DNA of 41,486 nt from Patescibacteria group bacterium (lineage in GTDB: Bacteria; Patescibacteriota; Minisyncoccia; Moranbacterales; DUUL01). Position 1 is the first letter of the stretch. Each line of letters starts with the position of its first letter. Location of the stretch: the NCBI GenBank assembly GCA_015493225.1, contig WGDO01000007.1:1-41486 (forward strand), in the 5' to 3' direction. The notes beneath the pieces were generated by a model that worked only from the letters and a program-made list of their open reading frames with translations, made no database searches and was not told where the DNA came from. Positions 2,320 to 26,040 of this stretch are shown piece after piece. Made by a program: the position numbers and the translations under genes.

Positions 2320-3732
2320 TTGTCCACTCCTCGCAAAATAGCGCTCAACGTCATCATCGCTTCCATATCCAAGGTTTTAAATACAATTCTAGCCCTGGTA
2401 GGTTTAATGTTGATTACTCGTTACCTTGGACCAGATAAATTTGGTCTTTATATTACCGCTTTAGCTTTTAGCGGTCTTTTTAATTCCCTAGGAGACTGGG
2501 GAATATACCAAACTTCTACCCGGGAAATTTCTCGACCAAAAGCCAAGGAAAAAGTCATTATTGGAAATGTAATGGCCCTTCGAATCACTGTTTCTATATT
2601 TTTAGCTTTAATTATGCCAGTAGTAATTTATTTTCTACCATACACCTTTGAATTAAAAATTGCTCTGCTCTTAATTTTACTAACCTATATTTTCTATTCT
2701 TTCTATCAAGTTCTGATTGGCCTTTTCCAAAAAAGATTAATTATGTACAAAGTCACCCTAGTGGAATTAATAGGAAAAATTATTCAAGTTGCTTTAGTGT
2801 TTTTAACAATTAAATTAGACTTAGGATTCAAATTCATCGTAGCTGGAATGACCATCTCCATGTTCAGCAATTTTATATTAATTTATTTTTTGTCTCGTCA
2901 ATTTATTAAATTTAAATTAAACTTTAATATTAATCGCTGGAAAAATTTTCTCAAAGAATCCTGGCCCATTGGCTTATCTGTCATCGTAACCTTTATATAT
3001 TTTAAAGCTGACACTCTTCTCCTTAAGGCTATGAAAAGCAATGTAGATGTGGGAATTTATGGAGCCGCCTATAAAGTCCTGGAAAATATCACTTTTTTCC
3101 CAGGAATGATTATCGGACTAATGATGCCAATGTTTTCCTATTACATTTTTAAGGATCGAAAAAAGTTTCAACGTTTAGTTAATGAAAATTTTAAATTATT
3201 TGTAATTCTAATTATTCCCCTGATAATTATTGTAATGTTCTTTGCGGAAAATATCATAGCCATCGTAGCTGGTCCACAATTTACCGCCTCAGCCACAGTT
3301 CTACGAATAGTCATCTTTAGTCTAGCCTTCATCTTTTTTGGGATGCTCTTTGGAAATATTCTCCTGGTAGCTAAACTTCAGAAACAACAACTTCTCGCTC
3401 TAACTGCCGTAGCCATCTTCAATGTTTCTACTAATCTGATTCTCATTCCAAAATATTCTTATTTAGCAACCTCGGCCGTATCAGTGGCTACAGAATTTTT
3501 AGTTGTCTTACTAAGTGCCAGCATTGTTTACAAGCATCTACACTTTCTACCCCGAATGAAAAATTTTGGTTTAGTCCTTCTGTCTGGCTTAACCATGATT
3601 GCCTATTTTTTTATCCTTCATTCCCTACCATTTTTCTTCCTATTACTAACCGGCCCCTTGATTTATTTTGCCGTCTTGGTTTTTTCCAAAGTTATTACTA
3701 AAAAAGAAATTATGATGTTGGTTAAGAAATGA
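2320..3732 (+). CDS. Polysaccharide flippase (Wzx/MATE-like, oligosaccharide transporter)
   Basis: A 470-aa integral membrane protein with 12-14 predicted hydrophobic helices spread over its length. The N-terminus (IASISKVLNTILALVGLMLITRYLGPDKFGLY) is the typical start of the PST/Wzx branch of the MOP flippase superfamily. Such proteins move lipid-linked oligosaccharides or wall precursors across the membrane. The start is a TTG codon at 2320, chosen because the upstream frame is closed and the conserved first helix begins right after it. The stop is TGA, direct evidence that TGA is not recoded. No glycosyltransferases are adjacent, so the substrate (surface glycan or lipid II) is unknown. 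Confidence 0.85.
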   Translation: MSTPRKIALNVIIASISKVLNTILALVGLMLITRYLGPDKFGLYITALAFSGLFNSLGDWGIYQTSTREISRPKAKEKVIIGNVMALRITVSIFLALIMPVVIYFLPYTFELKIALLLILLTYIFYSFYQVLIGLFQKRLIMYKVTLVELIGKIIQVALVFLTIKLDLGFKFIVAGMTISMFSNFILIYFLSRQFIKFKLNFNINRWKNFLKESWPIGLSVIVTFIYFKADTLLLKAMKSNVDVGIYGAAYKVLENITFFPGMIIGLMMPMFSYYIFKDRKKFQRLVNENFKLFVILIIPLIIIVMFFAENIIAIVAGPQFTASATVLRIVIFSLAFIFFGMLFGNILLVAKLQKQQLLALTAVAIFNVSTNLILIPKYSYLATSAVSVATEFLVVLLSASIVYKHLHFLPRMKNFGLVLLSGLTMIAYFFILHSLPFFFLLLTGPLIYFAVLVFSKVITKKEIMMLVKK

Positions 3733-3885
3733 CATATTAAAAATATGCCCCACAAAAAAACACTCATTCATTATTCCAATGTTTTATAGAGATATTAATA
3801 ACCAAGATACAAAATACAAGCAACAAATAATAATCAAACCACAATAATCAAACTGCAAAAATATATAATCAACTTTTAAAACGCC

Positions 3886-4278
3886 ATGCAAAATAATAAT
3901 AGACAAACCAAAAACCACAAATTTGACTTGGAAGACAGAACTCTTGAATTTGCCAAAAGAATCATACAAATGTGCAAATCTTTACCAAATGATACCGTTA
4001 ACTTTAAATTAATTGATCAAATAATAAGATCCGCCGGTTCTGTCGGGGCTAATTATAGAGAAGCTAATGATTCACTAGGCAAAAAGGATTTTTTAATGAG
4101 ATTAAGAATCGCCCGCAAAGAATGTAAAGAAACAGAATTTTGGTTGCATTTAATAATTGAAGCCAATCCCGCTTTTAAAGAACGAATAATGCCATTGTTA
4201 AATGAATCAATAGAATTAAAAAAGATATTTTCATCAATAATCACAAACTCAACAGCTAGAACAAAACATCACAAATAG
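3886..4278 (+). CDS. Four helix bundle protein (23S rRNA intervening sequence / S23 family)
   Basis: A 130-aa protein with FDLEDRTLEFAKRIIQMCKSL at the start, then LIDQIIRSAGSVGANYREAND and RLRIARKECKETEFWLHLI. These are the hallmark segments of the 'four helix bundle' family (TIGR02436), whose structure is an antiparallel helical bundle that forms oligomers. The family was first noticed inside 23S rRNA intervening sequences. Free-standing copies are common in CPR and Bacteroidetes genomes, and their function is unknown. A diverged paralogue lies at 18672-19046. Both are flanked by repeat-rich spacers, which suggests a mobile or repeat-associated habit. Confidence 0.85.
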   Translation: MQNNNRQTKNHKFDLEDRTLEFAKRIIQMCKSLPNDTVNFKLIDQIIRSAGSVGANYREANDSLGKKDFLMRLRIARKECKETEFWLHLIIEANPAFKERIMPLLNESIELKKIFSSIITNSTARTKHHK

Positions 4279-4449
4279 CCAAAAAGATACTCCCAGAAAG
4301 ACATTCGGTAAATTACAGTTTGGGGTATTGATTATTGAAATTTATTTGTATCTTGGTGTTTGTACCTTGGTTATTAGTCTGACCATCAATGTCATTTATC
4401 ATTTGTCATAAAGTTATTGTTTATTAGTTAATCACCTAACCCAAAAATT

Positions 4450-5511
4450 ATGAAAAAATTAAACCACCTCTACCTCCTAACCTTAATCATTGCCATCGGC
4501 ATTGGTCTGTACTTTATTTTCAAACCGTTTCTGGTAGCCATTTTTCTAGCATTTATTTTATCCAGATTATTTAACGAATGGTATCAAAAAATACTCAGGG
4601 TTTTAAAAAATCCCTCCTTTTCTGCTTTCATAACTTCTTCCATCATTTTTCTAATCATATTTCTCCCTCTAGTCTTCGTTGGGAAATTGGTTGCCACGGA
4701 ACTAGTCAATTCCTATCAAGTCGTTACTTCTGAAAATTTTAAAACAGACTTTTTTACCTGGCGAGATTCTTCCCTAAAAACCATTAACCAACATCCCTCT
4801 CTAACAACTAAATTAGCCCAAACCAACCTATTAAATAATAAAAATATTAACACCTTACTAAAAAATACCGGCAACCTTTTAGCTACTTTAGCAAAATATC
4901 TATATCAAGGCACCAGTCATTTTTTGTTCACTCTTTTTATTATGTTTTTTTGTCTATATTATTTTTTCAAAGACGGCGACCGACTTATTAATAAAATAAT
5001 TCAACTTTCTCCTCTTAAAAATTCTCAGGAAAAAAAACTATTGGAAAATTTTATAGGCATTTCCAGAGCAACTCTAAAGGGATCTTTAATAGTAGCCATT
5101 GTCCAGGGAAGTTTAACAACAATTTTGTTCATTGCCACAGGCATTCCTTCGGCTATCCTACTTGGGGTAATTGCCACCATCTTCGCTTTAATTCCAATGT
5201 TAGGCACAGCTGTTGTTTGGCTTCCTGTGGGCTTAATAACTCTACTTTTGGGCAATATTTGGCAAGGTATTACAATTTTATTAGTTGGAGCCCTAGTTAT
5301 TAGTAGCATAGACAATATTCTCCGACCATATTTAGTAGGAAAAAACACCAGTCTACATCCGCTACTGGTGTTTCTATCAACCATTGGTGGTATCACTTTC
5401 TTTGGAATTACCGGTTTCCTACTCGGGCCAGTAACAGTTGTTTTATTTCTAAATCTTCTGGAAATATACAAAACTGAATTCGCCACTGAACTTAAAAAGT
5501 TTAATAACTGA
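4450..5511 (+). CDS. AI-2E family transporter (PerM/YdiK type)
   Basis: A 353-aa membrane protein with about eight hydrophobic segments: two near the N-terminus, one pair around 55-75, one near 155-180, and a C-terminal group from about 205. The C-terminal stretch GTAVVWLPVGLITLLLGN and the DNILRPYLVGK motif are characteristic of the AI-2E transporter (UPF0118) family. Characterised members export autoinducer-2 or act in Na+/H+ antiport, and the substrate cannot be predicted here. The gene stands alone on the plus strand and converges on the minus-strand surface block, with a palindromic repeat in the intervening spacer. Confidence 0.85.
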   Translation: MKKLNHLYLLTLIIAIGIGLYFIFKPFLVAIFLAFILSRLFNEWYQKILRVLKNPSFSAFITSSIIFLIIFLPLVFVGKLVATELVNSYQVVTSENFKTDFFTWRDSSLKTINQHPSLTTKLAQTNLLNNKNINTLLKNTGNLLATLAKYLYQGTSHFLFTLFIMFFCLYYFFKDGDRLINKIIQLSPLKNSQEKKLLENFIGISRATLKGSLIVAIVQGSLTTILFIATGIPSAILLGVIATIFALIPMLGTAVVWLPVGLITLLLGNIWQGITILLVGALVISSIDNILRPYLVGKNTSLHPLLVFLSTIGGITFFGITGFLLGPVTVVLFLNLLEIYKTEFATELKKFNN

Positions 5512-5540
5512 TCACAGGTAACATAAAATTAAAAAAAATT

Positions 5541-5588
5541 TCCTTAATTCCCCTACTTTAGCAAAAAAAAAGTTAGGGGTAGATTTAG
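5541..5588 (+). repeat. Dispersed palindromic repeat, degenerate copy
   Basis: tccttaattcccctacttta...aagttaggggtagattta is a diverged copy of the 'ttagttcccctcctttgtaaaggaggggttaggggtggattt' family. It lies between convergent genes, where the hairpin could serve as a terminator. An aaatttacaaattacaaatt repeat follows at about 5620-5655. Confidence 0.55.
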
Positions 5589-5751
5589 TTTTCAGAATTT
5601 GAAATTTGATTTTGAATTAAAATTTACAAATTACAAATTACAAATTAAAATTTAATCCAAACTTTCTATTTTATAGACTCTTAACCAGTGAATATCTGAT
5701 TTACAAACTTTTGACTTTGTAGACTTTATAAACTTTACAAATTTCTCAACA

Positions 5752-6270
5752 CTAAAACGTCGTCATCTCCTCCGCTCCCTTTTCTCTCTTCTTCCAAAAC
5801 TTAAAGCTATCCACATCAATCCTCCCATTTCCTCCATAGAAAGGATGTTTGAGGCAAGCAAACGCCAACCAAGTAGCCAAAGACATTACAACTAAACCAA
5901 AAAAAGACAATAAAATAAAACTTCCACCACTAGTATTACTATGACTGAAGATTTTTTTAATACCCGAAAATAAACTAGAAAAAATATTAATGATTGATAA
6001 AATTAAAACTAACATCACAACCAATCGTTTTCCTGTGAAAACACCAACTGCTAATAAAATCAATAAAGCCATACCTACAAAACTAATAAAATATAATAAT
6101 GGAAAAATACCCAGCATTTTAGCAGCAATCATAGCATTTTGAGAAAGTATATAAGCTTCTATGTACACATAAATTAATATTCCAGTTAAAATGGGAAAAA
6201 TAATACTTATTAAAGCATAAATAATTCCTAATACTGTTCCTTGCCACGGTCTTTTTAGTTCATTTTTCAT
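5752..6270 (-). CDS. Small integral membrane protein, function unknown
   Basis: A 172-aa protein with four hydrophobic segments at about 12-35, 45-72, 80-98 and 115-137. It starts with a short cytoplasmic KNELKRPWQGT and ends in a charged tail, FKFWKKREKGAEEM. No catalytic motif is visible. The gene starts 9 bp downstream of the 425-aa anchored protein gene (6280-7557), so the two are probably cotranscribed with the surface block. The topology resembles DUF-type tetraspan proteins of CPR genomes, but no specific family can be named. Confidence 0.7.
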   Translation of the reverse strand: MKNELKRPWQGTVLGIIYALISIIFPILTGILIYVYIEAYILSQNAMIAAKMLGIFPLLYFISFVGMALLILLAVGVFTGKRLVVMLVLILSIINIFSSLFSGIKKIFSHSNTSGGSFILLSFFGLVVMSLATWLAFACLKHPFYGGNGRIDVDSFKFWKKREKGAEEMTTF

Positions 6271-6279
6271 AATTTTATT

Positions 6280-7557
6280 TTAATTTTTAATATCCAAAAG
6301 TTGTCTCAGTGTCATTATAAAATCCATAGTATGTGCCAGACTATCCACTCGAATAAATTGACTATTTTTCCTCACCTGTAAAGTTCCACAAAGCTTTCTG
6401 GGAACATTACTGAGAGGATTCAATTGATTACACAGCTGTAAACTGGCTATATTTCCAAGTGACTGCTTAATCGCAAACATATAATTTCTCTGACGAGTTT
6501 TATCATCTAACTCTAAAGCAATTCTATAAGCAGTTACCAATGATTCAGAATAAATAGCATCAGAAGCAGAGTGCGGTTTTCCATATTCTGGATGTTCCGG
6601 AGAATAAAATCTTCCAATATAATCCCAAGTATCTTGTATTTTTAATAATTCATCATTTAATTTAAAAATCGCTTCTGTATATTTTAAATCATTAGTAGCA
6701 TGCCACAACTTACTCAAAGCCATAGTATGCCAAGGAACATATGCCGGATAATAATTTTTTTGCATATTGTCAACATATTTCACCAAATAATAGTCCTCAG
6801 ACTTTTTAGCCATATCTAAAATTTGCTGATCGTTGGTTTTTCGATAATACTCCATTAAAGCCAAAATAGCTTCTCCGGAATAAAAATTTAATTTCCTTTC
6901 TTTATTATATTCAAAATTAGGTGAAACAACAAAAAATGGCGACTTAAATGATCCGTCTGAATTTTGCAAAAACTTAATACCAGCAACTAATTCTTGAAGC
7001 TGTTGAGAATATTCATTGGAATAGGGACTACTTATCAACAATCGTAATAATAAAGCACTTGACCCTAATTTAGCTTTGCTATCATATAAAATATAACCAA
7101 TTTTTTGCCCATCTTTTATTTCAGTCTTATATAATCCATGTCGAAACACAAAATCTAAATTCTTTTTATGAATTGCACAAAATTCTTGATTCCCCTGTTG
7201 ACACAACCTAGCTACAACTCTAAAGGTCAACAACTGTCTTATAATATTATTTTTGCCCCCCTCTTTATTTCTAATATCATAGAGATAAACAAAAGAACCG
7301 TCATCTTGAACATTGTGCAATAACCACCCTCTGCCCAAAGAAAATATTTCATTAATTTCCTGATAATATTTATTATCATTCCCAACTTTAATTTCCTGGG
7401 TTGTAGATACATTATTTAACAAATTACCACCCAAAATACTAGTAACAATATTATTAACAGTAATATCATTTCTTAGTAAATAATAAGTACCCATAAACAG
7501 TATTATTAAGAAAAAAATAATTCCTGTAATAATTGTTTTTTTATTTTTTCTAAACAT
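6280..7557 (-). CDS. Membrane-anchored protein with helical toroid-like domain
   Basis: A 425-aa protein with a basic N-terminus and one TM helix (IITGIIFFLIILFMGTYYLL), so the rest is probably extracytoplasmic. The body alternates helices with recurring DGSF words (VQDDGSFVYLYD near 85, NSDGSFKSPF near 200). It also has FYSGEAILALMEYY and PWHTMALSKLWHATND. This pattern is typical of alpha/alpha-toroid folds such as terpene-cyclase-like, glycoside hydrolase and C5-epimerase proteins. Late acidic/aromatic segments could line a sugar-binding cleft, but I cannot assign catalytic residues. It lies 46 bp downstream of the giant protein gene, so a role in surface glycan or wall processing is a reasonable inference only. 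Confidence 0.6.
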   Translation of the reverse strand: MFRKNKKTIITGIIFFLIILFMGTYYLLRNDITVNNIVTSILGGNLLNNVSTTQEIKVGNDNKYYQEINEIFSLGRGWLLHNVQDDGSFVYLYDIRNKEGGKNNIIRQLLTFRVVARLCQQGNQEFCAIHKKNLDFVFRHGLYKTEIKDGQKIGYILYDSKAKLGSSALLLRLLISSPYSNEYSQQLQELVAGIKFLQNSDGSFKSPFFVVSPNFEYNKERKLNFYSGEAILALMEYYRKTNDQQILDMAKKSEDYYLVKYVDNMQKNYYPAYVPWHTMALSKLWHATNDLKYTEAIFKLNDELLKIQDTWDYIGRFYSPEHPEYGKPHSASDAIYSESLVTAYRIALELDDKTRQRNYMFAIKQSLGNIASLQLCNQLNPLSNVPRKLCGTLQVRKNSQFIRVDSLAHTMDFIMTLRQLLDIKN

Positions 7558-7603: not shown

Positions 7604-10600
7604 TTAATCTGAGTCACCATCGCCACCTTCAGGATCATCCCACTCACAGCTGTATCCAGTCCAATCCCAGCCCGCTCCTTTTTTCAAACATTCAGCTTCT
7701 TTCTTGGCCGTGTTATTTAAAACACATCTTCCTCCTCGCCAAATATAACCACCTCTATTTAAACAAGCTTGCTGATCTGATATACAAGCACGGGCATTAA
7801 AATCCCAACTAGTACCTCCACCACAGGAGTGCGCTTGTGATTTAATAAATTGTTCTCGAGCGTTATTTATGACTCGCCTCTGACTAGACAAACTGGATAC
7901 ACGAGATTGAAGCTCTAACCGCCTTTTTTGATCAGTAACCCTGTTAAGTTCCTCTTGTAATTTTAAAATTTCTCTATCAATCTCTCTAATTTTATCATTA
8001 AAATTATTTGTAACATAACTCATAACAGTTCCCTTTGCCTTGTGTAATTGCTTAGAAACATCCGTTACACAATCCTGATCATGTCTTCGGTAACAATCAC
8101 TCAACTTATTACTTAGATGGATGTAGTCATTTACCACATTATTTCCCGGTAAATAATCAACAGTATTAGCCTCTAAAACACCTGGCAAAGCTCTAACATT
8201 CATTGCCCGAGTAAACTCATTCTGAACCATTCGCTCTGCTATATCAAATATCCCTTCTAACCCAGCCATTCCAGCAATTTGTCCCAATGGCGTATTCTTT
8301 AATGAATTATTGACAATTCTATCTACCGCTCCTATATCATTATTTGCCAAAGCTTGATTAATACGCCTCATATCGTTAGGAGCAATGTTATTATTTAATA
8401 AATTGGGAGCAACAGCCTCTTCGGTAGTCCGTTGCCATTCTTTTAACATTCTTTCCGACGGTCCACCAGTACCAATTCCAAAAGCACCAGCTATAGCGCC
8501 CAATGCACCACCAATAACTGCCCCTATTGGTCCATAAATTTCCCCTCCAACCGTAGCTCCAGCAGCAGCTACTGTTGCCACACCAACTGTTTCAGCATGA
8601 ACCGTCCCAGTTTGCACCAAATCCATTCCTATAGCCATCAACATCGAAACAAATGGCACTATAGCCGTAGCAGCTTGAGCGGCAGTCTGAGATCCTGCCG
8701 CCTCTAAAATTGCTTCATTAGTAAGTGCTTGATCTATAGAACCAGAAATAGCAATATTATTTACAGCATCAAGACCAACTGTATCTATTAGTGTTTGATT
8801 AATAGCATTTTGAACCGCCTGTGTAGCTAAATATTGACTAACCACAGCATTAGTAATTTCAGTCGTAATAACCCCCTGCCCAACATCTATTGCTGTTCTT
8901 TCCAAGTCTATACTACCATTATTTATTAATTGCCCTATAACACTACTACCAAATGATGACAATCCAGTTGTAACAACCCCCGTTTGACCAATCGGCATAC
9001 TCCCCTCTCCCCAAAGACTGGCATTATTATTTATTACTTCTGTTAAATAGCCTGATGACACATCTGTTGCAAACACCTTCACTGTTTCTCCAATATCCCC
9101 TGTACTAACAAGAGTAGCAGCAGTGTGTTCCATGGCATTACCAATATAACCATTCAAAGAATCATGGACATCCGTACTAATTAAATTATTTTCCGCCAAT
9201 GTATCCCAGGCAGCATTAAGGGCTAATCCTCCAGCACTTTCCACTAAACGATCCGTATCACCCAAAGACACAGCCGAAATAACACCTGTCGCCAAATCTG
9301 CCAATCCACTTTGCAATGATGTTAGATGCTTTTCCCCGTCGTTTCCAGGATCACCAAAAAGTTGTCGGGCCGCTTCCTGCCCAGTACTTTGGATAACATT
9401 TTCAGCCAAAATTCTAGTTCCCTGGTCAGCAGTCAAAGTTCCATTACTTAACATTCCCAAAACTTCTTTTGACCCTCTCGCCAAGCCATTAACTAGACCC
9501 GAATCTAAAAATTGATCCAGATTAAAATTATTAGGCACCTGCGATTGTACTTGTGACTGTGACTGTTGTACATCCACCTGACCAGATTGCACAGCCTCCT
9601 GCCCAGCTGATTGCAAAACCCCACTATCAATCTGCCCGACTGGAAGAACAGAAGAATCATTAGCTAAACCAGAAATCATATCCGAATTAACATCTCCATC
9701 ATCAGCCAATTTTACCTCATCACTAACTTCAGAAAAATAATTTGATGGATTATCAGGAGTAACCTTAGTATATTCTCTTCCATTATTATCTTTAAATTTA
9801 TCACCAATCTCATTAACAACACTAGAATTAATCCATCGTATATTCCCATCCTTATCAGCATAAGCAATACTTTCAATAACCTCATCTTCCGTAACTTTAT
9901 TTACTTTCACAGACTCTTCTTGCTTATCCCTACTGTTGGCAGCATCTGTTCCTACTTTATACTGAGAACCAAACTCCTCCCCCGCCTGCTCATAAGCAGT
10001 TTTTTCCTTTTTTCCAAATAATAACTTAAAAGGGTTTATTCTTGACCAAAAACTTTTTTCTTCTCTTTCGCTAACTTTAAGTGGTTTAATATTAATTTTA
10101 CTTGACTTATTAACATTACCGCCCCCTGACGCATCACCTCCTTCTATCGCTATTCTTTGATTTCTTTCTCCTGGTTTTATATTCACCAATGAAGCATCTG
10201 TGCCTGAAATAACAGTACTATCCTTATTAATCACAGACTCATTCCTTGGTGTAGTCACATTATCATTTTTATAATCTACTTCTGTGCTTCCACCATCTCC
10301 ATGATCAGAATCTTCATACCCAGTTAAAGTCCCTCTACTATCACTTTTTAAAGCCACCCTGTTATTGTCCTTTTCTGCAAGATCTTCTCCACTATCACAA
10401 AACCAAGTTCCAAAAAAGCACTTTTTATACTCTCCCGTCTTCTTATCCTTTTCATAGCCTTCATCTGGCAATAAATATTGTTTTGAAGTAAACTTTTTTT
10501 CAGAAGTTACAACACTATCATTTTCTCTGCTTGCAACTTTGTCTTTATTCTCACCATTTTTCTCAATTTTAATATCATTTCCTTTATTTATACCCGACTT

Positions 10601-13600
10601 TACTCCCTGATTAACTTGAACAATCGTATCTACTGGGTTTTTTTTACTATCAGCCAATTCAACAGGAGCTCTTTTTAAATTTGTATCCTTGTATGCTCTA
10701 CCCGTATCCGGATTAATCCAGGCTGGTGCCTTTTCAGTTGATATATCATTATTATTCTTAGCTAATTCTGTACCACTTTTACAGCCACTAAAAAAGCTAA
10801 ATATACTTCCCAAGGTACCACATTGTTCATAAGTCTTTTTTCCATTTGTATCTTGAGAAACGGAATAACTCTTTTTTTTGTCTAAATATATTCTTCCTTT
10901 TGGATAATCCTCATTACTAAATGGCAAGACATCTTCCGGTCTTCCTGGTATGTATGTATCATAAGATTTTTGTCCTGCATCAATATTTTCATTGACAACT
11001 TTTTGTGCCTTCGTCGCTGCTTGGTTTATGCCCTCGGCTGCAGAATTTAAAGTTTTCACTAATTGTTGTCCTGCATTACCTACTTGCTTACTTAAATTAT
11101 CTAATGTTTGAGCCCTCTCTTTAGGTGGCATTTGTGATAATCCATAAGCTCCCACAGCAAATAAGGTTGGCGCCCCAATACCAGCAGCTACGGCAGTAAT
11201 CCCAACTGTCTTAATGAGTGCGTTTATTTCATTTTCTGACATACTTCCAACTTTATCTGCCATATTTTTCATTTGAATAATTTCACCTGTTTTATTAAAC
11301 ACACCCAACACTTCATTATTATTACCAACAACAACTTTTATTATTTGCTGTGACCCATTATTAGCTCTTACTTTTACCTCTTTGACAGCATAATCACCAA
11401 CTTTTTTAGAAAAATTTTTGTCAATTCTTTTGTTATTTTGTAAAATATTACTAACCGGCTTAATTACCGAATCTCCTATACCAGATAATATTTGAGCTAT
11501 ACTACTTTCATTTTTTTCAGTTCTAAAAAAAGAATATTTTGTGTTACCCTGAGCAAATTTTTCTCCTCCTTTAGAATAAATAACTTCTCCATTTCTTTTA
11601 ACATAAGCAATTGGCTGTTTATCATTACCATAAATAAGAACATTCCCAGATGGACTTTTTTCTTGTTTTTTCCCTCTAAATTGAGAAGATTGCAATACTT
11701 CCTCTTGAGTTTTAAAAGACTTTCCATCATCAGTTAACATCCGAGAGCTAACAACCTTACCACCATTATCATTAACCTGAGCAGCCCGCTGTAATAAACT
11801 CCTAATTGGTTCATATTCTTTTTTATCATCAGGAGCCGAATAAGTTACTATGGGGTAAGCAGACTTAACTTGTTCATATTTTGATGAACCAAACATGTGC
11901 AATATATTATCTCCAAATAATCTTGAAGTTAACTTAATTGCCACACCAGGTCCTCCCGTAAATATCCCAGCGGTAGTTACCTTATTCATAATTCTAGATC
12001 CCTTTGTTGGAATTTTAGTTAATGGTTGAGACAATATGGCAACATTTTTTGAATTACGCCCTATTAAATAATTCCCTCGTTGCTCCCAGTGCGTTACTTC
12101 GTTATCTTTATGTTTAACAGAGGAAACAACTTCTTTTCTACCACTTGGAAGCACGCTAGGTAATTTATACTTCCCCAATTCAATTGCTTTTGTAAACAGC
12201 CTATCCACTTTCTCTGGATCTTTACTTCTTAGAATTGGACTCCTGAGCATATATCCAGTTTTATCTTCTTGCAAAAGAACAGCCTCTGGCATACCACTCT
12301 TTGTAACAATTACTGCACCACTGGGCATCTTTGTATATTTAACAGAACCATCATTTTTTAACGGGTAATTCTCTTTTAACCATCTTTTCTGTTCACTAAA
12401 TTTAGTATTTTTATTACTCTTTACATCTTGACTAGATGATTTATCAACGGCAACCACTTGCGGTGGATTAGTCCTCCTGTCTTTTGATTCTACATACCCA
12501 TATTTCCTTTTTGCTCTTTCCAACATCTTCCCATCAAAAGGAAGATATTCACTATCTCTCTCAAACAATTTCCGTCCATTAGCCATCGCTACCGGTTGAC
12601 CATTATTCTTATCTTCAACTATTAGTGCATTATTTCTACTCTTAGGAAGTCTTACATAGTTAAATTTATCTATAGGATATTTATCTTTTAATAAATCACG
12701 ATTTTTACTACTTATATCCCTAATATCCTCCTCTGTGCTATACACAGTAAGATCTTTACCAGCCCTTAAGGTTTTATCAGCAAGAGTGCTATCAACATCA
12801 ATTATTATCGGATCATCTACAAACGACACCTTATTTCCGTCTGCCCCAGTCACAAAAGAATTATCTTTATCAATTTGTTCCTGAATACCAGCAATTTCAT
12901 CTCCATACCCACTTTTCATATCATCCTTTCCATATTTCGTCACTGCTTTATTGTAGGCAGTGTCATTATTTTTATCTCCCCCAAACCCCGCAATCATTTC
13001 CCCATCAGTTCCAAAATAATCCTTCGCTTTTTGCTCTGTAATTTGTTTATTTTTATTCCCCCCAAACCAACTCTTAAATTTCTCCCAACCGCTGGACAAC
13101 CAAGCTTTTTTCTCTTTTTTGGAGGTATTAAAAGCACTACCTCCCAATCCTGTTGGGCGAAAATTTCCATTTTCATCATAACCATCACTAGGGGAAGCAA
13201 TAATTGGTACTTGATTTCCATTGTCACTATTTTCCCCAACTAAGCCACTGTTTAATAGTCCCTGTAAACGTTCTCTTTCTTGTATTAATCTGCGCTTAGT
13301 TTCTCGAGAGTCATTACCATTTGAATCTACCCTAATTCCATGTATGTTATTTATTTGCCGATTTATTTCATTAAGTCTTTGCTGGATTTGTATTCTAGAA
13401 GCACCTCTAATAGTACCTGTTGTTGGCATCTTACTCAAATCGTTATATTCGGCAGACCCTTCTATGCTATTTATTAAATCAGCTTCATGTGGATTTTTCT
13501 CGAAAGCTACTTCTTGTTGATTATTGCTAAGTTGATTATTACCTTTATTTGTAGAATCATCCAAGCCAACAATCTCATCACCATAACCATCTTTCATATC

Positions 13601-15739
13601 TGGTTGTATATACTTTTTTGCTAGATCATTATAAGCGGTGTCATTGGTTTCATTTTTCCCATTTTCATCCCCGGCCGTATAAAAACTATCCAAGGCATTA
13701 ACCCTTTCATCACTCTTTTTCTCACCATCGAACCAACTAAATGGATTTAATTTTGATAGCCAACCCTTCTTTTCCTCAACAGCCCTAAGCTTGGCGGATT
13801 GTTGGGAAGTGTTGGTTGGATCTGATTGGATTTCTTGTCTGGTATTATCAGAATATTTCTTCCAAACTTCCGGAGCAGTACCTTTAAATAATCCGGTTTT
13901 TGAATCTGTTACATTTCCATATTGATCTATAACCAAATTAGTATTATCCCCTTCTCCGGCGACACTTTCCTTTGGGCTAAATACTTTTCCGATTAAACCA
14001 TTGAGCCAACCTTCTTTCTTTTTGGCTAATTGAACCTTGTCTCCGGTAATCGGATCAATAACATCTCCATCGGTTTTCGGATTATATGGTCTGGTCTCCG
14101 CATAAAGTTCTTTTTGGTTTCCGGTGGCGTATTGTTTGGTGTCGGCGATTTCATTAAGCAATTTCGCTGCATCTCGTGGAGTTTTAATAATATTTATAAC
14201 TTGAGTAGTGTTACCATTTAAAGATCCTGGAGATTTTTTTTCTATTTCTATTAATTTTTCAACATCATCTTTAGTTATTTTATCTCCATATTCCTTATGC
14301 AAATATTTCATTAAATCATGCCTAAGATACCATAATCTAGTACGCACCTCTCCTAAATCAGTAATATAATCATAGCCAGCTTTTTTATAAGCTTCTGACG
14401 CAACTTTTTTCCACTCATCCTCACTTTTTAATGAATTTTTTATTAAAATTTTTGTCTTTTCTGGAAAGTCCCATCCCCTATTTCCATTCATATCAATAAT
14501 ATGCCCTGCTTCATGTGGAAGCTCATAACCAAGTTCGCCACATTCGGAAGATTCACAATCTTTATCTGTTTTATTTAAAATATCATCTTTATTAAGATAA
14601 ATATCATGTCCACCTACAGTTACCGCCCCCGTTGTTACCCCATTTATATCATTTTGCAATTCTCTACTATCATAACCCACAACTGATATCCTAGCATTAT
14701 CAAGCCTATCTAATCGCCTTTGTCTTGCTGCCTTTGCTTTTTCCTCATCATTATCATACTGAATAAGTAAACGCTTAAAATAAGCTGGGGAAGTTATTTC
14801 GTCACGCATGTTATTTACAATATTTAGAATTCGTTTTTTTAAATCACCACCAGCCACAATATTAATACCTTTATTTTTATTATCAACTATAACTACATTA
14901 GTATCATGTTCATAAGCTTTAGCTGATTGGCAACCCGACTTAAAAATATCTAAAAATCTATTACATTCTTCATAATAATAGTCAGGGTCCTCGATAACAT
15001 GACTATCCTCATCAGAGTTATCATTTAGATCATCTTTACTTTTTTTACGTATGTACTTTTTTCCAACGTCTAAAAAAATATTATCATCTATAGATATAAC
15101 TTGCTTAGTTTCAAATGGGAATATGAGATTATCTCCATAATCATCATCTTCCAAGTCAGAATCACTCTCATCTTCTCCAAACCCTGCTAAAATGTCCGTT
15201 TTTAGTTGCTTGTTGAATAATCCCACAAAGTCTGCCCAAAGCTTTTTGAAAAATCCGATTTTCTTTTTGGGTTGTTTATTGCTTAAATCAATATATTTAT
15301 CAATACCATCGACGCTATCATCATCTTTGCTTTTAATTTCCAGATCTTTATCATCATTATTTTTAGTCGCCTTCAAATCATCACTTAAAGCATCCACGGT
15401 TTTGTCTCCTAAAACCTCTCGAGCCACCAGTTCGGTTTTTAGGTCTGAAAATCCATTGGCAGTTTGCTGATTTTCTGTTTTTTCTTTTTTCCAAAATTCC
15501 CACCAATGACTTTTGGGCTGACTTTCTTGCATAATCTCATCAACTGTAATTGCATCGGCGGTTTCGATAACCTTAGCTTGAGCTACGGCCGGTTCTCCCA
15601 GAAAGTTAAGCTGTCCTTCACTCAATCCCCAAACCAAAAAACTGCCATTACTGGTGGCAAACATTAAAAGGGATAAAATCCCAGCTATAATTTTAGAAAC
15701 TTTTCTGTTTTTTATTTTTTTAGTTTGATTTTTCAACAT
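7604..15739 (-). CDS. Giant exported multidomain protein with zinc-metallopeptidase motif
   Basis: A 2711-aa protein encoded by 20% of the window. The N-terminus is basic, followed by a signal-like helix (IIAGILSLLMFATSNGSFLV), so it is probably exported. A canonical zincin motif HEAGHIID starts near residue 409, with acidic candidates for the third ligand in LGEVRTRLWY about 50 residues later. A repeated unit, NDTAYN..A.KY...DMK.GYGDEI.G, occurs near 697 and 923. Trp-rich basic amphipathic words recur (WWEFWKKEK, WLSKLNPFSWFDG, WEKFKSWFGG, FWSRINPFKLLFGKK). A long Gln/Val-rich stretch is near 2050-2100. Near 2380-2425 a glycine-zipper segment (GPIGAVIGGALGAIAGAFG) could insert into membranes. 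The last 90 residues hold three GG/GxxW...C Cys modules and an acidic tail. No family is recognised as a whole; a surface-attached or polymorphic-toxin-like effector is plausible. Confidence 0.8.
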   Translation of the reverse strand: MLKNQTKKIKNRKVSKIIAGILSLLMFATSNGSFLVWGLSEGQLNFLGEPAVAQAKVIETADAITVDEIMQESQPKSHWWEFWKKEKTENQQTANGFSDLKTELVAREVLGDKTVDALSDDLKATKNNDDKDLEIKSKDDDSVDGIDKYIDLSNKQPKKKIGFFKKLWADFVGLFNKQLKTDILAGFGEDESDSDLEDDDYGDNLIFPFETKQVISIDDNIFLDVGKKYIRKKSKDDLNDNSDEDSHVIEDPDYYYEECNRFLDIFKSGCQSAKAYEHDTNVVIVDNKNKGINIVAGGDLKKRILNIVNNMRDEITSPAYFKRLLIQYDNDEEKAKAARQRRLDRLDNARISVVGYDSRELQNDINGVTTGAVTVGGHDIYLNKDDILNKTDKDCESSECGELGYELPHEAGHIIDMNGNRGWDFPEKTKILIKNSLKSEDEWKKVASEAYKKAGYDYITDLGEVRTRLWYLRHDLMKYLHKEYGDKITKDDVEKLIEIEKKSPGSLNGNTTQVINIIKTPRDAAKLLNEIADTKQYATGNQKELYAETRPYNPKTDGDVIDPITGDKVQLAKKKEGWLNGLIGKVFSPKESVAGEGDNTNLVIDQYGNVTDSKTGLFKGTAPEVWKKYSDNTRQEIQSDPTNTSQQSAKLRAVEEKKGWLSKLNPFSWFDGEKKSDERVNALDSFYTAGDENGKNETNDTAYNDLAKKYIQPDMKDGYGDEIVGLDDSTNKGNNQLSNNQQEVAFEKNPHEADLINSIEGSAEYNDLSKMPTTGTIRGASRIQIQQRLNEINRQINNIHGIRVDSNGNDSRETKRRLIQERERLQGLLNSGLVGENSDNGNQVPIIASPSDGYDENGNFRPTGLGGSAFNTSKKEKKAWLSSGWEKFKSWFGGNKNKQITEQKAKDYFGTDGEMIAGFGGDKNNDTAYNKAVTKYGKDDMKSGYGDEIAGIQEQIDKDNSFVTGADGNKVSFVDDPIIIDVDSTLADKTLRAGKDLTVYSTEEDIRDISSKNRDLLKDKYPIDKFNYVRLPKSRNNALIVEDKNNGQPVAMANGRKLFERDSEYLPFDGKMLERAKRKYGYVESKDRRTNPPQVVAVDKSSSQDVKSNKNTKFSEQKRWLKENYPLKNDGSVKYTKMPSGAVIVTKSGMPEAVLLQEDKTGYMLRSPILRSKDPEKVDRLFTKAIELGKYKLPSVLPSGRKEVVSSVKHKDNEVTHWEQRGNYLIGRNSKNVAILSQPLTKIPTKGSRIMNKVTTAGIFTGGPGVAIKLTSRLFGDNILHMFGSSKYEQVKSAYPIVTYSAPDDKKEYEPIRSLLQRAAQVNDNGGKVVSSRMLTDDGKSFKTQEEVLQSSQFRGKKQEKSPSGNVLIYGNDKQPIAYVKRNGEVIYSKGGEKFAQGNTKYSFFRTEKNESSIAQILSGIGDSVIKPVSNILQNNKRIDKNFSKKVGDYAVKEVKVRANNGSQQIIKVVVGNNNEVLGVFNKTGEIIQMKNMADKVGSMSENEINALIKTVGITAVAAGIGAPTLFAVGAYGLSQMPPKERAQTLDNLSKQVGNAGQQLVKTLNSAAEGINQAATKAQKVVNENIDAGQKSYDTYIPGRPEDVLPFSNEDYPKGRIYLDKKKSYSVSQDTNGKKTYEQCGTLGSIFSFFSGCKSGTELAKNNNDISTEKAPAWINPDTGRAYKDTNLKRAPVELADSKKNPVDTIVQVNQGVKSGINKGNDIKIEKNGENKDKVASRENDSVVTSEKKFTSKQYLLPDEGYEKDKKTGEYKKCFFGTWFCDSGEDLAEKDNNRVALKSDSRGTLTGYEDSDHGDGGSTEVDYKNDNVTTPRNESVINKDSTVISGTDASLVNIKPGERNQRIAIEGGDASGGGNVNKSSKINIKPLKVSEREEKSFWSRINPFKLLFGKKEKTAYEQAGEEFGSQYKVGTDAANSRDKQEESVKVNKVTEDEVIESIAYADKDGNIRWINSSVVNEIGDKFKDNNGREYTKVTPDNPSNYFSEVSDEVKLADDGDVNSDMISGLANDSSVLPVGQIDSGVLQSAGQEAVQSGQVDVQQSQSQVQSQVPNNFNLDQFLDSGLVNGLARGSKEVLGMLSNGTLTADQGTRILAENVIQSTGQEAARQLFGDPGNDGEKHLTSLQSGLADLATGVISAVSLGDTDRLVESAGGLALNAAWDTLAENNLISTDVHDSLNGYIGNAMEHTAATLVSTGDIGETVKVFATDVSSGYLTEVINNNASLWGEGSMPIGQTGVVTTGLSSFGSSVIGQLINNGSIDLERTAIDVGQGVITTEITNAVVSQYLATQAVQNAINQTLIDTVGLDAVNNIAISGSIDQALTNEAILEAAGSQTAAQAATAIVPFVSMLMAIGMDLVQTGTVHAETVGVATVAAAGATVGGEIYGPIGAVIGGALGAIAGAFGIGTGGPSERMLKEWQRTTEEAVAPNLLNNNIAPNDMRRINQALANNDIGAVDRIVNNSLKNTPLGQIAGMAGLEGIFDIAERMVQNEFTRAMNVRALPGVLEANTVDYLPGNNVVNDYIHLSNKLSDCYRRHDQDCVTDVSKQLHKAKGTVMSYVTNNFNDKIREIDREILKLQEELNRVTDQKRRLELQSRVSSLSSQRRVINNAREQFIKSQAHSCGGGTSWDFNARACISDQQACLNRGGYIWRGGRCVLNNTAKKEAECLKKGAGWDWTGYSCEWDDPEGGDGDSD

Positions 15740-15860: not shown

Positions 15861-16826
15861 CTAGTAGCTCTCTTGCGCACACGGCGCCATATTACAAGCC
15901 TCCGGAATCTTTACTTTCAAACAATTACTCGTCTGTACATATCTAATTCGCTTTCCACCACCACAGGACTTACTACACGGCCCTTCTTCCTGTGTTTTAG
16001 GACAATCTTTTTCTAATTTAATATTTCCACTTTCATCTAAATCGAGACTTCCATCTTCATTCAGCTTAGCATGAAATCCCTTAGCCGGATAAAATTCACA
16101 AACGCCCATACCACATTCACTTTTTGAAGCCACCATACTACTAGAATGCATATTACTAGGACTGAAAAACATATCTGCACCATCACAAGCTTGAAGCTTG
16201 TTTTCATTTCCAACATAAACACCTGTGCAACACATTTTTTTACCAATTACAAAAATTTTTTCTGGAGCACTTGAATTCGCACATCCTGCCGGTCTCCGTC
16301 CCCAGGTATAAGCAAAATTACACACCTCTTCCGCAGAAGGCTTCCAGGCTTGCATATCAGTACATTTTTTCAACCCAGTAATTTTTCTATTCAAAGTATT
16401 AATTTTATTTGTCAAATCACCAATTAAACTTGTCTGTAAAGTCGGACCAAAATTACCCTGGGTGGCCAATTCCAAAAAAGTATCTTTAGTAAAAAACATC
16501 CCCATCGCTCCCAAAATAATTACCACAATAATTGTCTGTTTAAAATATTTATTTAACAAAGCCCAGACATAACAAAAAGCATATTTTCCTTTGTACTTCT
16601 TATAACGCAAACAACGAGACTGCTCCCGTCGTATCACCTGATTATATTTTCGCCATTTTTTTACTAAAAACCCAAACAAAAAAACAGACCTCTTTTTGGA
16701 TCTTTTTTTTATCACCCGACGACGCTTTAATCCCGAACGAACTGTCCGCCTTTTAACAATAGTAGAACTTTTTTTAACAACTCTTTTTTTAATAGCTTTC
16801 TTTTTTATTTTCTTTTTATTAACCAT
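15861..16826 (-). CDS. Basic-tailed single-pass membrane protein with thrombospondin-1-like C-terminal module
   Basis: A 321-aa protein. Residues 1-95 are extremely Lys/Arg-rich and should be cytoplasmic. A TM helix follows (YFKQTIIVVIILGAMGMFF), then a short helical region and a Cys-rich exported part. One section contains CNFAYTWGRRPAGCANSS and KKMCCTGVYVG. The C-terminus reads GPCSKSCGGGKRIRYVQ followed by paired cysteines and APC, the pattern of a thrombospondin type 1 repeat (CS..CG.G.R.R..C...C...C), which usually mediates adhesion in extracellular proteins. The gene precedes the giant protein gene in the same orientation with a 121-bp gap. A role in surface adhesion or in anchoring the giant protein is inference. 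Confidence 0.65.
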   Translation of the reverse strand: MVNKKKIKKKAIKKRVVKKSSTIVKRRTVRSGLKRRRVIKKRSKKRSVFLFGFLVKKWRKYNQVIRREQSRCLRYKKYKGKYAFCYVWALLNKYFKQTIIVVIILGAMGMFFTKDTFLELATQGNFGPTLQTSLIGDLTNKINTLNRKITGLKKCTDMQAWKPSAEEVCNFAYTWGRRPAGCANSSAPEKIFVIGKKMCCTGVYVGNENKLQACDGADMFFSPSNMHSSSMVASKSECGMGVCEFYPAKGFHAKLNEDGSLDLDESGNIKLEKDCPKTQEEGPCSKSCGGGKRIRYVQTSNCLKVKIPEACNMAPCAQESY

Positions 16827-16849: not shown

Positions 16850-17011
16850 TAGACCTCTTGCAAAACCATTCGCTTAATAAAAAAGCTTAGATTTTCTGTT
16901 AATTTTTCTACATAAATTTTTTTCTTATGCCTTAGCATAGGACAAAAATTTTAAAGGAAAATTAGCAGAAAAGATTGGTTTTTTATAGTGAAGGATTTTG
17001 CAAGAGGTCTA
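16850..17011. mobile_element. 162-bp palindromic MITE-like element (copy 1)
   Basis: The element begins tagacctcttgcaaaa and ends in the exact inverse ttttgcaagaggtcta. The two halves remain complementary almost to the centre (tatgc-ctta-gcata). It has no coding capacity. The TA at both ends could be a duplicated TA target, as used by IS630/Tc1-type transposases. A second element of exactly the same length and terminal design lies at 38141-38302. I call it a non-autonomous transposon-like element; no transposase is in the window. Confidence 0.6.
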
Positions 17012-17064: not shown

Positions 17065-17184
17065 CTAGTTCCCCTCCTTTGTAAAGGAGGGGTTAGGGGT
17101 GGATTTAGATTTAAATTTTAAAATTCACAATTTTTTAAATCCCCCCTTAGTCCCCCCTTTTTCAAAGAGGAGAAAGCTAAGGAG
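17065..17184. repeat. Two oppositely oriented copies of the C/G-rich palindromic repeat
   Basis: 17065-17107 is a full copy (ctagttcccctcctttgtaaagg...ggttaggggtggattta). 17136-17184 is an inverted degenerate copy (aatccccccttagtccccccttt...gctaagga). Together with the 162-bp element they fill the 369-bp gap between the surface protein and lytic transglycosylase genes. Confidence 0.65.
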
Positions 17185-18671: not shown

Positions 18672-19046
18672 TTAAACTTTTTTCTTCTTATTATTTAGAG
18701 TAGCAGTTATCTTTCCAAATATTAGTGTAAATTCGTGACATTCTTGCCATAATTCTCTAGCTTCTTTTTTAATTTCTGGAGCACTTTCACTAATCATCCT
18801 TAGCCAATGTTTTGTTTCTCTAGCTTCTTTCTGACAAATATGAATTTTATTTCTAAAATCTTTTTTTGAACTAGCTCCATTAGCTTCACAGTAATTAGCA
18901 CCAATACTAGTAGATGATCTAACTAGCTGGTTTATAATTGACTTATTGATTGTGTCCTGTTTTACTCTCCTACACAACTTTACAACATTCCCTCCAAATT
19001 TAGAAGTTCTTTCTTCTAAATCAAACCGTTTATCAATTTCAGTCAT
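18672..19046 (-). CDS. Four helix bundle protein (paralogue 2)
   Basis: A 124-aa protein with RFDLEERTSKFGGNVVKLCRRV, IINQLVRSSTSIGANYCEANGASS and KIHICQKEARETKHWLRMI, the same three signature segments as the protein at 3886-4278. The two copies are clearly diverged, so this is not a recent duplication. It sits between AT-rich repeat copies, downstream of rplY and followed by the lytic transglycosylase gene, on the same strand. The family's cellular role is unknown. Its spread within repeat-bordered spacers fits an accessory gene. Confidence 0.85.
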   Translation of the reverse strand: MTEIDKRFDLEERTSKFGGNVVKLCRRVKQDTINKSIINQLVRSSTSIGANYCEANGASSKKDFRNKIHICQKEARETKHWLRMISESAPEIKKEARELWQECHEFTLIFGKITATLNNKKKKV

Positions 19047-25810: not shown

Positions 25811-26040
25811 CCTTAGTTACCCTCCCGGCGCTTGTCCCTCGTAGCTTTAGCGAAGTGGGATAAAGGAGAGGTTAGGAGCAAATTTACCTTAGTTCCCCTC
25901 CTTTTGTAAAGGAGGGATTAGGGGTGGATTTACCTTAGTTCCCCTCCTTTGTAAAGGAGGGGTTAGGGGTGGATTTTGTTTTAAATTTAAAATACTTAAA
26001 ATCTCCCCTCAACCCCCTCTTTTCAAAAGGGGGAATTCCC
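25811..26040. repeat. Cluster of four C/G-rich palindromic repeats
   Basis: The 340-bp gap between gap and the Cys-rich protein gene holds a degenerate copy at 25811-25886, interrupted by an unrelated gcgcttgtccctcgtagc insertion. Two nearly identical head-to-tail copies follow at 25887-25931 and 25932-25976 (ttagttcccctcctttgtaaagg...ggggtggattt). An inverse-orientation copy is at 26001-26040. No gene is supported here. Confidence 0.75.

What the first reader, a model, noticed from the sequence alone, without database searches (positions are those of the whole stretch)
7604..15739. 2711-aa exported protein with zincin motif, membrane-active-like segments and Cys modules
One gene of 8.1 kb is a large investment for a small genome. 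It combines an export signal, HEAGHIID protease motif, repeated GYGDEI units, Trp-rich amphipathic words, a glycine zipper and C-terminal Cys modules. CPR bacteria are often host-attached, and giant surface proteins could mediate attachment, lysis or nutrient uptake from the host.
Basis: partly seen in the sequence, partly recalled or inferred. Interest (0 to 1): 0.65.

Follow-up and report, generated by a model that had tools for sequence, protein, structure and literature searches.

The report
Giant exported bacterial protein with metalloprotease domain
A tiny-genome CPR (Patescibacteria) bacterium carries, in a four-gene block that a relative lacks, a 2711-residue secreted protein that fuses an undescribed zinc-protease-like domain to a long unfamiliar tail, probably displayed outside the cell to act on or hold other cells.

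Summary
In detail: one uninterrupted 2711-codon gene (window 7604-15739, minus strand), the largest ORF of its 1.3-Mb Patescibacteria genome. It has a signal-peptide-like N-terminus, a single HEAGH, two copies of a GYGDEI-containing 42-residue repeat, six Trp/Phe clusters, a glycine zipper and three C-terminal Cys modules. No full-length relative was found, nor any Pfam, NCBIfam or PDB assignment.

Three things are new. (1) The zincin reading is real: residues 284-560 are homologous to nine stand-alone proteins (about 243-506 aa) in the same order; HExxH and a downstream Glu (E464) are invariant in all ten, the gluzincin ligand set. No library holds this family, and it was not found confidently outside the order. 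(2) All 16 Cys fall into eight close pairs (chance maximum 6 in 20,000), suggesting a disulfide-bearing exported protein. (3) The gene lies in a four-gene block (TSP1-like protein, giant, membrane-anchored GH127-like protein, 4-TM protein) between two genes that are adjacent in a same-family genome: probably an accessory island.

Most likely a secreted or surface protein with a metallopeptidase head. Its target, its catalysis and the tail's role are inferred, not shown. 'Membrane-active' is only weakly supported: two of six Trp words are strongly amphipathic.

The parts
7604..15739 (-). 2711-aa orphan giant protein (P0001)
   Evidence: ORF; GC3 (0.24) similar to neighbouring genes; largest ORF of the genome
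15575..15739 (-). Signal-peptide-like N-terminus, residues 1-55 (K-rich, hydrophobic 17-38, AxA-type AVAQA at 51-55)
   Evidence: KD peak 1.71 (19-mer), 2.67 (12-mer); no SignalP available
14060..14890 (-). Zincin-like domain, residues 284-560
   Evidence: Homology to 9 proteins of the same order
14501..14515 (-). HEAGH (residues 409-413), putative zinc-binding/catalytic motif
   Evidence: H, E and H invariant in 10 of 10
14348..14350 (-). E464, putative third zinc ligand, 50 residues after H413
   Evidence: Invariant in 10 of 10; spacing 36-50
13535..13660 (-). Internal repeat copy 1 (residues 694-735, TAYN...GYGDEI)
12857..12982 (-). Internal repeat copy 2 (residues 920-961)
15470..15514 (-). 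Trp/Phe word 1 (76-90, KSHWWEFWKKEK)
15206..15262 (-). Trp/Phe word 2 (160-178, GFFKKLWADFVGLF), strongest hydrophobic moment in the protein
13715..13777 (-). Trp/Phe word 3 (655-675, KKGWLSKLNPFSWF)
13049..13117 (-). Trp/Phe word 4 (875-897, KKAWLSSGWEKFKSWFG), amphipathic (99th percentile)
10388..10429 (-). Trp/Phe word 5 with Cys pair (1771-1784, YKKCFFGTWFCDSG)
10004..10063 (-). Trp/Phe word 6 (1893-1912, EEKSFWSRINPFKLLFG)
8471..8680 (-). Hydrophobic segment plus glycine zipper (residues 2354-2423)
7832..8077 (-). Helical hairpin / coiled coil (residues 2555-2636)
   Evidence: AF2 single sequence, pLDDT up to about 92 in this stretch only
7646..7825 (-). Three C-x(n)-W-x(n)-C modules (residues 2639-2698)
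   Evidence: Cys pairing statistics
15861..16826 (-). P0004: single-TM Cys-rich protein with TSP1-like C-terminus, first gene of the block
   Evidence: no intact relative in the order
6280..7557 (-). P0002: membrane-anchored GH127-like (alpha/alpha-barrel) protein, 46 bp downstream
   Evidence: PF07944 33.9 bits, over its cut-off; no relative in the order
5752..6270 (-). P0003: small protein with about 4 TM segments, 9 bp downstream of P0002
5512..17195 (.). Interval occupied by the four-gene block; in same-family genome G001 the flanking genes (SLT protein and AI-2E permease) are 303 bp apart
   Evidence: L164

Best explanation
An accessory, island-encoded, Sec-exported multidomain protein that stays on or near the cell surface. 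The N-terminal part (residues 284-560) is a gluzincin-type metallopeptidase domain using H409, E410, H413 and E464. The long middle carries flexible, disulfide-pinned linkers and repeated Lys-flanked aromatic words that dock to something: envelope, membrane or partner proteins. The C-terminal helical/coiled-coil region and Cys modules hold or bind. With its block partners (TSP1-like anchored protein, GH127-like enzyme, 4-TM protein) it would process or bind surface polymers of the neighbouring/host cell or of its own envelope. Shown: ORF, homology and ligand conservation of the zincin, Cys pairing, repeats, the block and the empty arrangement in a relative. Inferred: zinc binding, proteolysis, surface location, target.
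For: Zincin homology to nine proteins with HExxH and E invariant; reverse search from a relative returns P0001 at 2.3e-9. A hydrophobic, export-like segment precedes the zincin in P0001 and in most intact relatives. All 16 Cys pair at 14 residues or less; a DsbA-like CxxC protein is seen in the genome. The island lies between genes adjacent in G001, and P0004, P0001 and P0002 lack relatives elsewhere in the order apart from the zincin domain. Neighbouring genes encode membrane or exported proteins.
Against: No domain outside the zincin is identified. No surface-anchoring signal (LPXTG or C-terminal TM) is evident. The zincin lacks the ST/RKQ residues common in relatives, and its H-to-E spacing is long (50; one relative also has 50). 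AF2 gave no usable zincin fold. No VKOR was found. Nothing links it to a host.
Confidence: 0.5

Rival explanations
1. Toxin-like effector against neighbouring bacteria: hydrophobic and glycine-zipper segments insert or translocate, the zincin is the active or self-processing part, and the 4-TM P0003 is the immunity protein.
For: Hydrophobic segments at 1512-1530 and 2354-2423; adjacent membrane protein P0003; accessory island; overall look of large modular toxins (inference).
Against: No polymorphic-toxin, RHS, filamentous-haemagglutinin or pretoxin domain in Pfam or NCBIfam; the zincin is N-terminal, not at the variable C-terminus; P0003 is separated from it by an enzyme gene.
Confidence: 0.2
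2. Structural envelope scaffold or adhesin in which the zincin domain is only a self-processing or inactive module.
For: Most of the length is linkers, repeats and disulfide loops; low-complexity polar composition; giant ORFs proposed as adhesins or coats in Omnitrophota (PMC10066038).
Against: All zinc ligands and the general base are kept, which is not expected of a decayed domain.
Confidence: 0.25
3. A rapidly evolving orphan without a stable function: chance fusion of a zincin gene to non-homologous sequence.
For: No relatives outside the zincin.
Against: Intact 8.1-kb frame, coding-like GC3, paired Cys and a retained internal duplication.
Confidence: 0.05

Closest known systems
Zincin metallopeptidases, gluzincin type (clan MA)
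   Same: HExxH on a predicted helix after an edge-strand-like segment, and an invariant downstream Glu
   Different: No significant match to any Pfam, NCBIfam or PDB peptidase; best is PF20573 DUF6782 at E=0.013 with one relative only
Uncharacterised stand-alone zincin proteins of the same Patescibacteria order (G461, G453, G456, G415, G455, G472, G005, G465, G445)
   Same: Homologous domain over about 250 residues with all ligands
   Different: They are about 243-506 aa (G465 is truncated at a contig edge), without the 2100-residue tail; P0001 is the most divergent, 20-29% identical
Giant ORFs of Omnitrophota (e.g. Velamenicoccus archaeovorus)
   Same: Giant ORF in a host-dependent small cell, few recognisable domains, proposed adhesion or predation (PMC10066038)
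   Different: P0001 is far smaller and shares no detected sequence; compared by description only

Membership tests
Zincin / gluzincin metallopeptidases | HExxH motif conserved across homologues | tested here: met
   10 of 10 sequences
Zincin / gluzincin metallopeptidases | Third ligand Glu downstream of HExxH | tested here: met
   E464 column invariant, spacing 36-50
Zincin / gluzincin metallopeptidases | Match to a curated peptidase family | tested here: not met
Zincin / gluzincin metallopeptidases | Zincin fold and zinc geometry | tested here: inconclusive
   AF2 single sequence pLDDT 38; no PDB profile hit
Zincin / gluzincin metallopeptidases | Metal binding and proteolysis | not testable with these tools
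   Needs protein
Sec-exported protein | Positively charged n-region, hydrophobic core, AxA-type site | tested here: met
   Sequence and hydropathy; no dedicated predictor
Polymorphic / contact-dependent toxins | Known toxin, RHS, haemagglutinin or pretoxin domains | tested here: not met
Polymorphic / contact-dependent toxins | Adjacent immunity gene | tested here: inconclusive
   P0003 is a 4-TM protein of unknown role

The most novel reading that the evidence does not exclude
P0001 is the effector of a horizontally acquired four-gene surface system in an episymbiont: a tethered metalloprotease, with a TSP1-like anchor and a glycan-cleaving partner, that opens or digests the host envelope. It would represent a new kind of CPR host-interaction module built on a previously undescribed zincin family.
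Probability: 0.15. Interest if true: 0.8.

Novelty: new variant of a known kind. Interest (0 to 1): 0.5.

Why it matters
How CPR bacteria act on their hosts is largely unknown, and their few giant exported proteins are the natural candidates. This one has a testable catalytic head (four named residues), a set of small homologues suited to crystallography, and a defined accessory block, so function and host interaction become directly testable.

Tried and rejected
Full-length searches in phages, plasmids, IMG/VR and genome contigs found nothing; domain or profile searches in viral contigs found nothing either. The G087 hit has five in-frame stops and was rejected; the G004 hit to P0004 is also stop-ridden. 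The G299 4965-aa-frame hit covers only glycine-zipper composition; G476 is an unrelated carboxylate ligase-like protein. Weak A2 hits in G501 and G710 cover only the HExxH helix and were taken as other zincin-like proteins. AF2 models of residues 275-560 and 2075-2711 were too poor for fold search, which was therefore not run. Beta-hairpin-like repeats at 1029-1493 look alike by eye, but the best pair scores within the shuffled range, so they are not claimed. Flanking repeats as proof of transposition were rejected: those elements are present in many copies.

Full report
The observation. Window 7604-15739 on the minus strand is one 2711-codon ORF in a 1,305,772-base, 87-contig genome, of which it is the largest ORF. 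The window is a whole chromosomal contig with rnpA, yidC, jag, gyrB, rodA, rpoA and ribosomal protein genes. RodA relatives are Patescibacteria, including Falkowbacteria and Portnoybacteria, so the CPR assignment stands. GC and third-position GC of the gene are like its neighbours.

Architecture. Residues 1-55 look like a long signal peptide. Residues 284-560 are the zincin-like domain. Linkers between roughly 56 and 1000 and between 1580 and 2060 are polar. A 42-residue segment is duplicated (694-735 and 920-961; ungapped score 116, shuffled maximum 52), and each copy follows a Trp word. Six aromatic clusters exceed shuffles (6 against 0.85 +/- 0.87), but only the words at 160-178 and 875-897 have top-percent hydrophobic moments, so 'membrane-active' is not established. 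The C-terminal third is predicted helical: glycine zipper at about 2386-2423 and coiled-coil hairpin at 2555-2636, the latter the only part AF2 models confidently. It ends in three Cys-Trp-Cys modules.

Cysteines. The 16 cysteines form eight pairs at 14 residues or less; 20,000 random placements never gave more than six. This fits local disulfides and thus an extracytoplasmic location (inference). A protein with a DsbA-like CPFC motif is encoded on contig C24; VKOR was not found.

The zincin. Neither Pfam, NCBIfam, PHROGs nor PDB sequences recognise it. Searching all 131 genomes of the order found one relative, G461 (E=1.7e-7 against P0001; 8e-16 pairwise). Searching with that relative found ten genomes, including P0001 itself at 2.3e-9. 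In the ten-sequence alignment the invariant columns include H409, E410, H413, Y458 and E464 (window numbering). HExxH followed 36-50 residues later by an invariant Glu is the gluzincin ligand pattern (established knowledge). One relative touches PF20573, 'putative metallopeptidase' (E=0.013, the segment just before and including HExxH). A class sample of 286 and a phylum sample of 259 genomes gave only weak matches beyond P0001; the two phylum matches are confined to the HExxH helix of other proteins. The family therefore appears largely confined to this order and patchy within it. In this genome it exists only as the fusion.

Genomic setting. RodA - 101-aa protein - L25 - SLT protein (P0005) is a conserved block; P0005 relatives occur in 113 of 124 order genomes. 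In same-family genome G001 the SLT gene is followed directly, 303 bp on, by the convergent AI-2E permease gene. In the window the same two genes are separated by 11.7 kb holding P0004, P0001, P0002 and P0003, all on one strand. P0002 and P0004 have no intact relative in the order. Gain in this lineage is the simplest reading, but a single comparator does not polarise it: two other family members have mraZ-like genes after the SLT gene. The P0005-P0004 gap holds a 162-bp palindromic-ended element with five other copies, and a repeat with about 60 copies whose degenerate relative lies at the other edge.

How it may work. P0002 is a membrane-anchored protein with a GH127 match over Pfam's cut-off; P0004 is a single-TM protein ending in a TSP1-like Cys domain (PF19035 E=0.0076, below cut-off; PDB CCN3 E=0.012); P0003 has about four TM segments. 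The block encodes exported or membrane proteins, with two putative enzymes facing outward. I infer a surface system that binds and cuts extracellular protein and glycan. Whether the substrate is a host, competitor or own envelope is unknown.

Novelty. Giant exported proteins in reduced, host-dependent bacteria are a known theme (Omnitrophota, PMC10066038), and zincins are an old superfamily. The lineage-restricted zincin family and its fusion to a relative-less tail inside a four-gene accessory block appear undescribed in the libraries searched.

Noticed in passing
Own genome contig C35:14075-17485 (L055) and C35:17523-21470 (L055/L122): A Cas12a gene (TIGR04330, 706 bits) sits 37 bp from a 1136-aa gene whose best solved relative is Cas12a3 (E=5.6e-80), the tRNA-tail-cleaving nuclease of PMC12851939: a tandem Cas12a/Cas12a3 pair in a patescibacterium.
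   Followed up: partly
window 16850-17011: About 162-bp TA-flanked element with inverted GACCTCTTGCAAAA ends, 92-96% identical copies on C13, C24, C76, C78 and a broken one on C69: a MITE-like family.
   Followed up: partly
window 17066-17100, 25890-25960 and about 60 other sites: High-copy palindromic repeat (ACCCCTAACCCCTCCTTT...AAAGGAGGGGAA), about 64 copies in 1.3 Mb.
   Followed up: partly
own genome C13:32300-32884 (L110), also C10, C13:29499, C69: Exported small proteins built of repeated CVDWDGDGWGWDGEKGC modules, four copies in one 194-aa ORF.
   Followed up: no
window 15861-16826: Very Lys/Arg-rich cytoplasmic tail, one TM and a TSP1-like Cys domain, unusual in a CPR protein.
   Followed up: partly
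L170 (G406) 2573-5962 and 9095-12715: Two paralogous 1129- and 1206-aa exported Cys-rich proteins flank the L25-SLT block, so this neighbourhood holds large exported proteins in another family too.
   Followed up: partly
L140, L141, L143, L146: In several relatives the stand-alone zincin gene neighbours a ZIP-like metal transporter gene and, in some, a rubredoxin-like gene (by eye).
   Followed up: no
window 3886-4278 and 18672-19046: Two four-helix-bundle '23S rRNA intervening sequence' proteins, each between unrelated genes.
   Followed up: no
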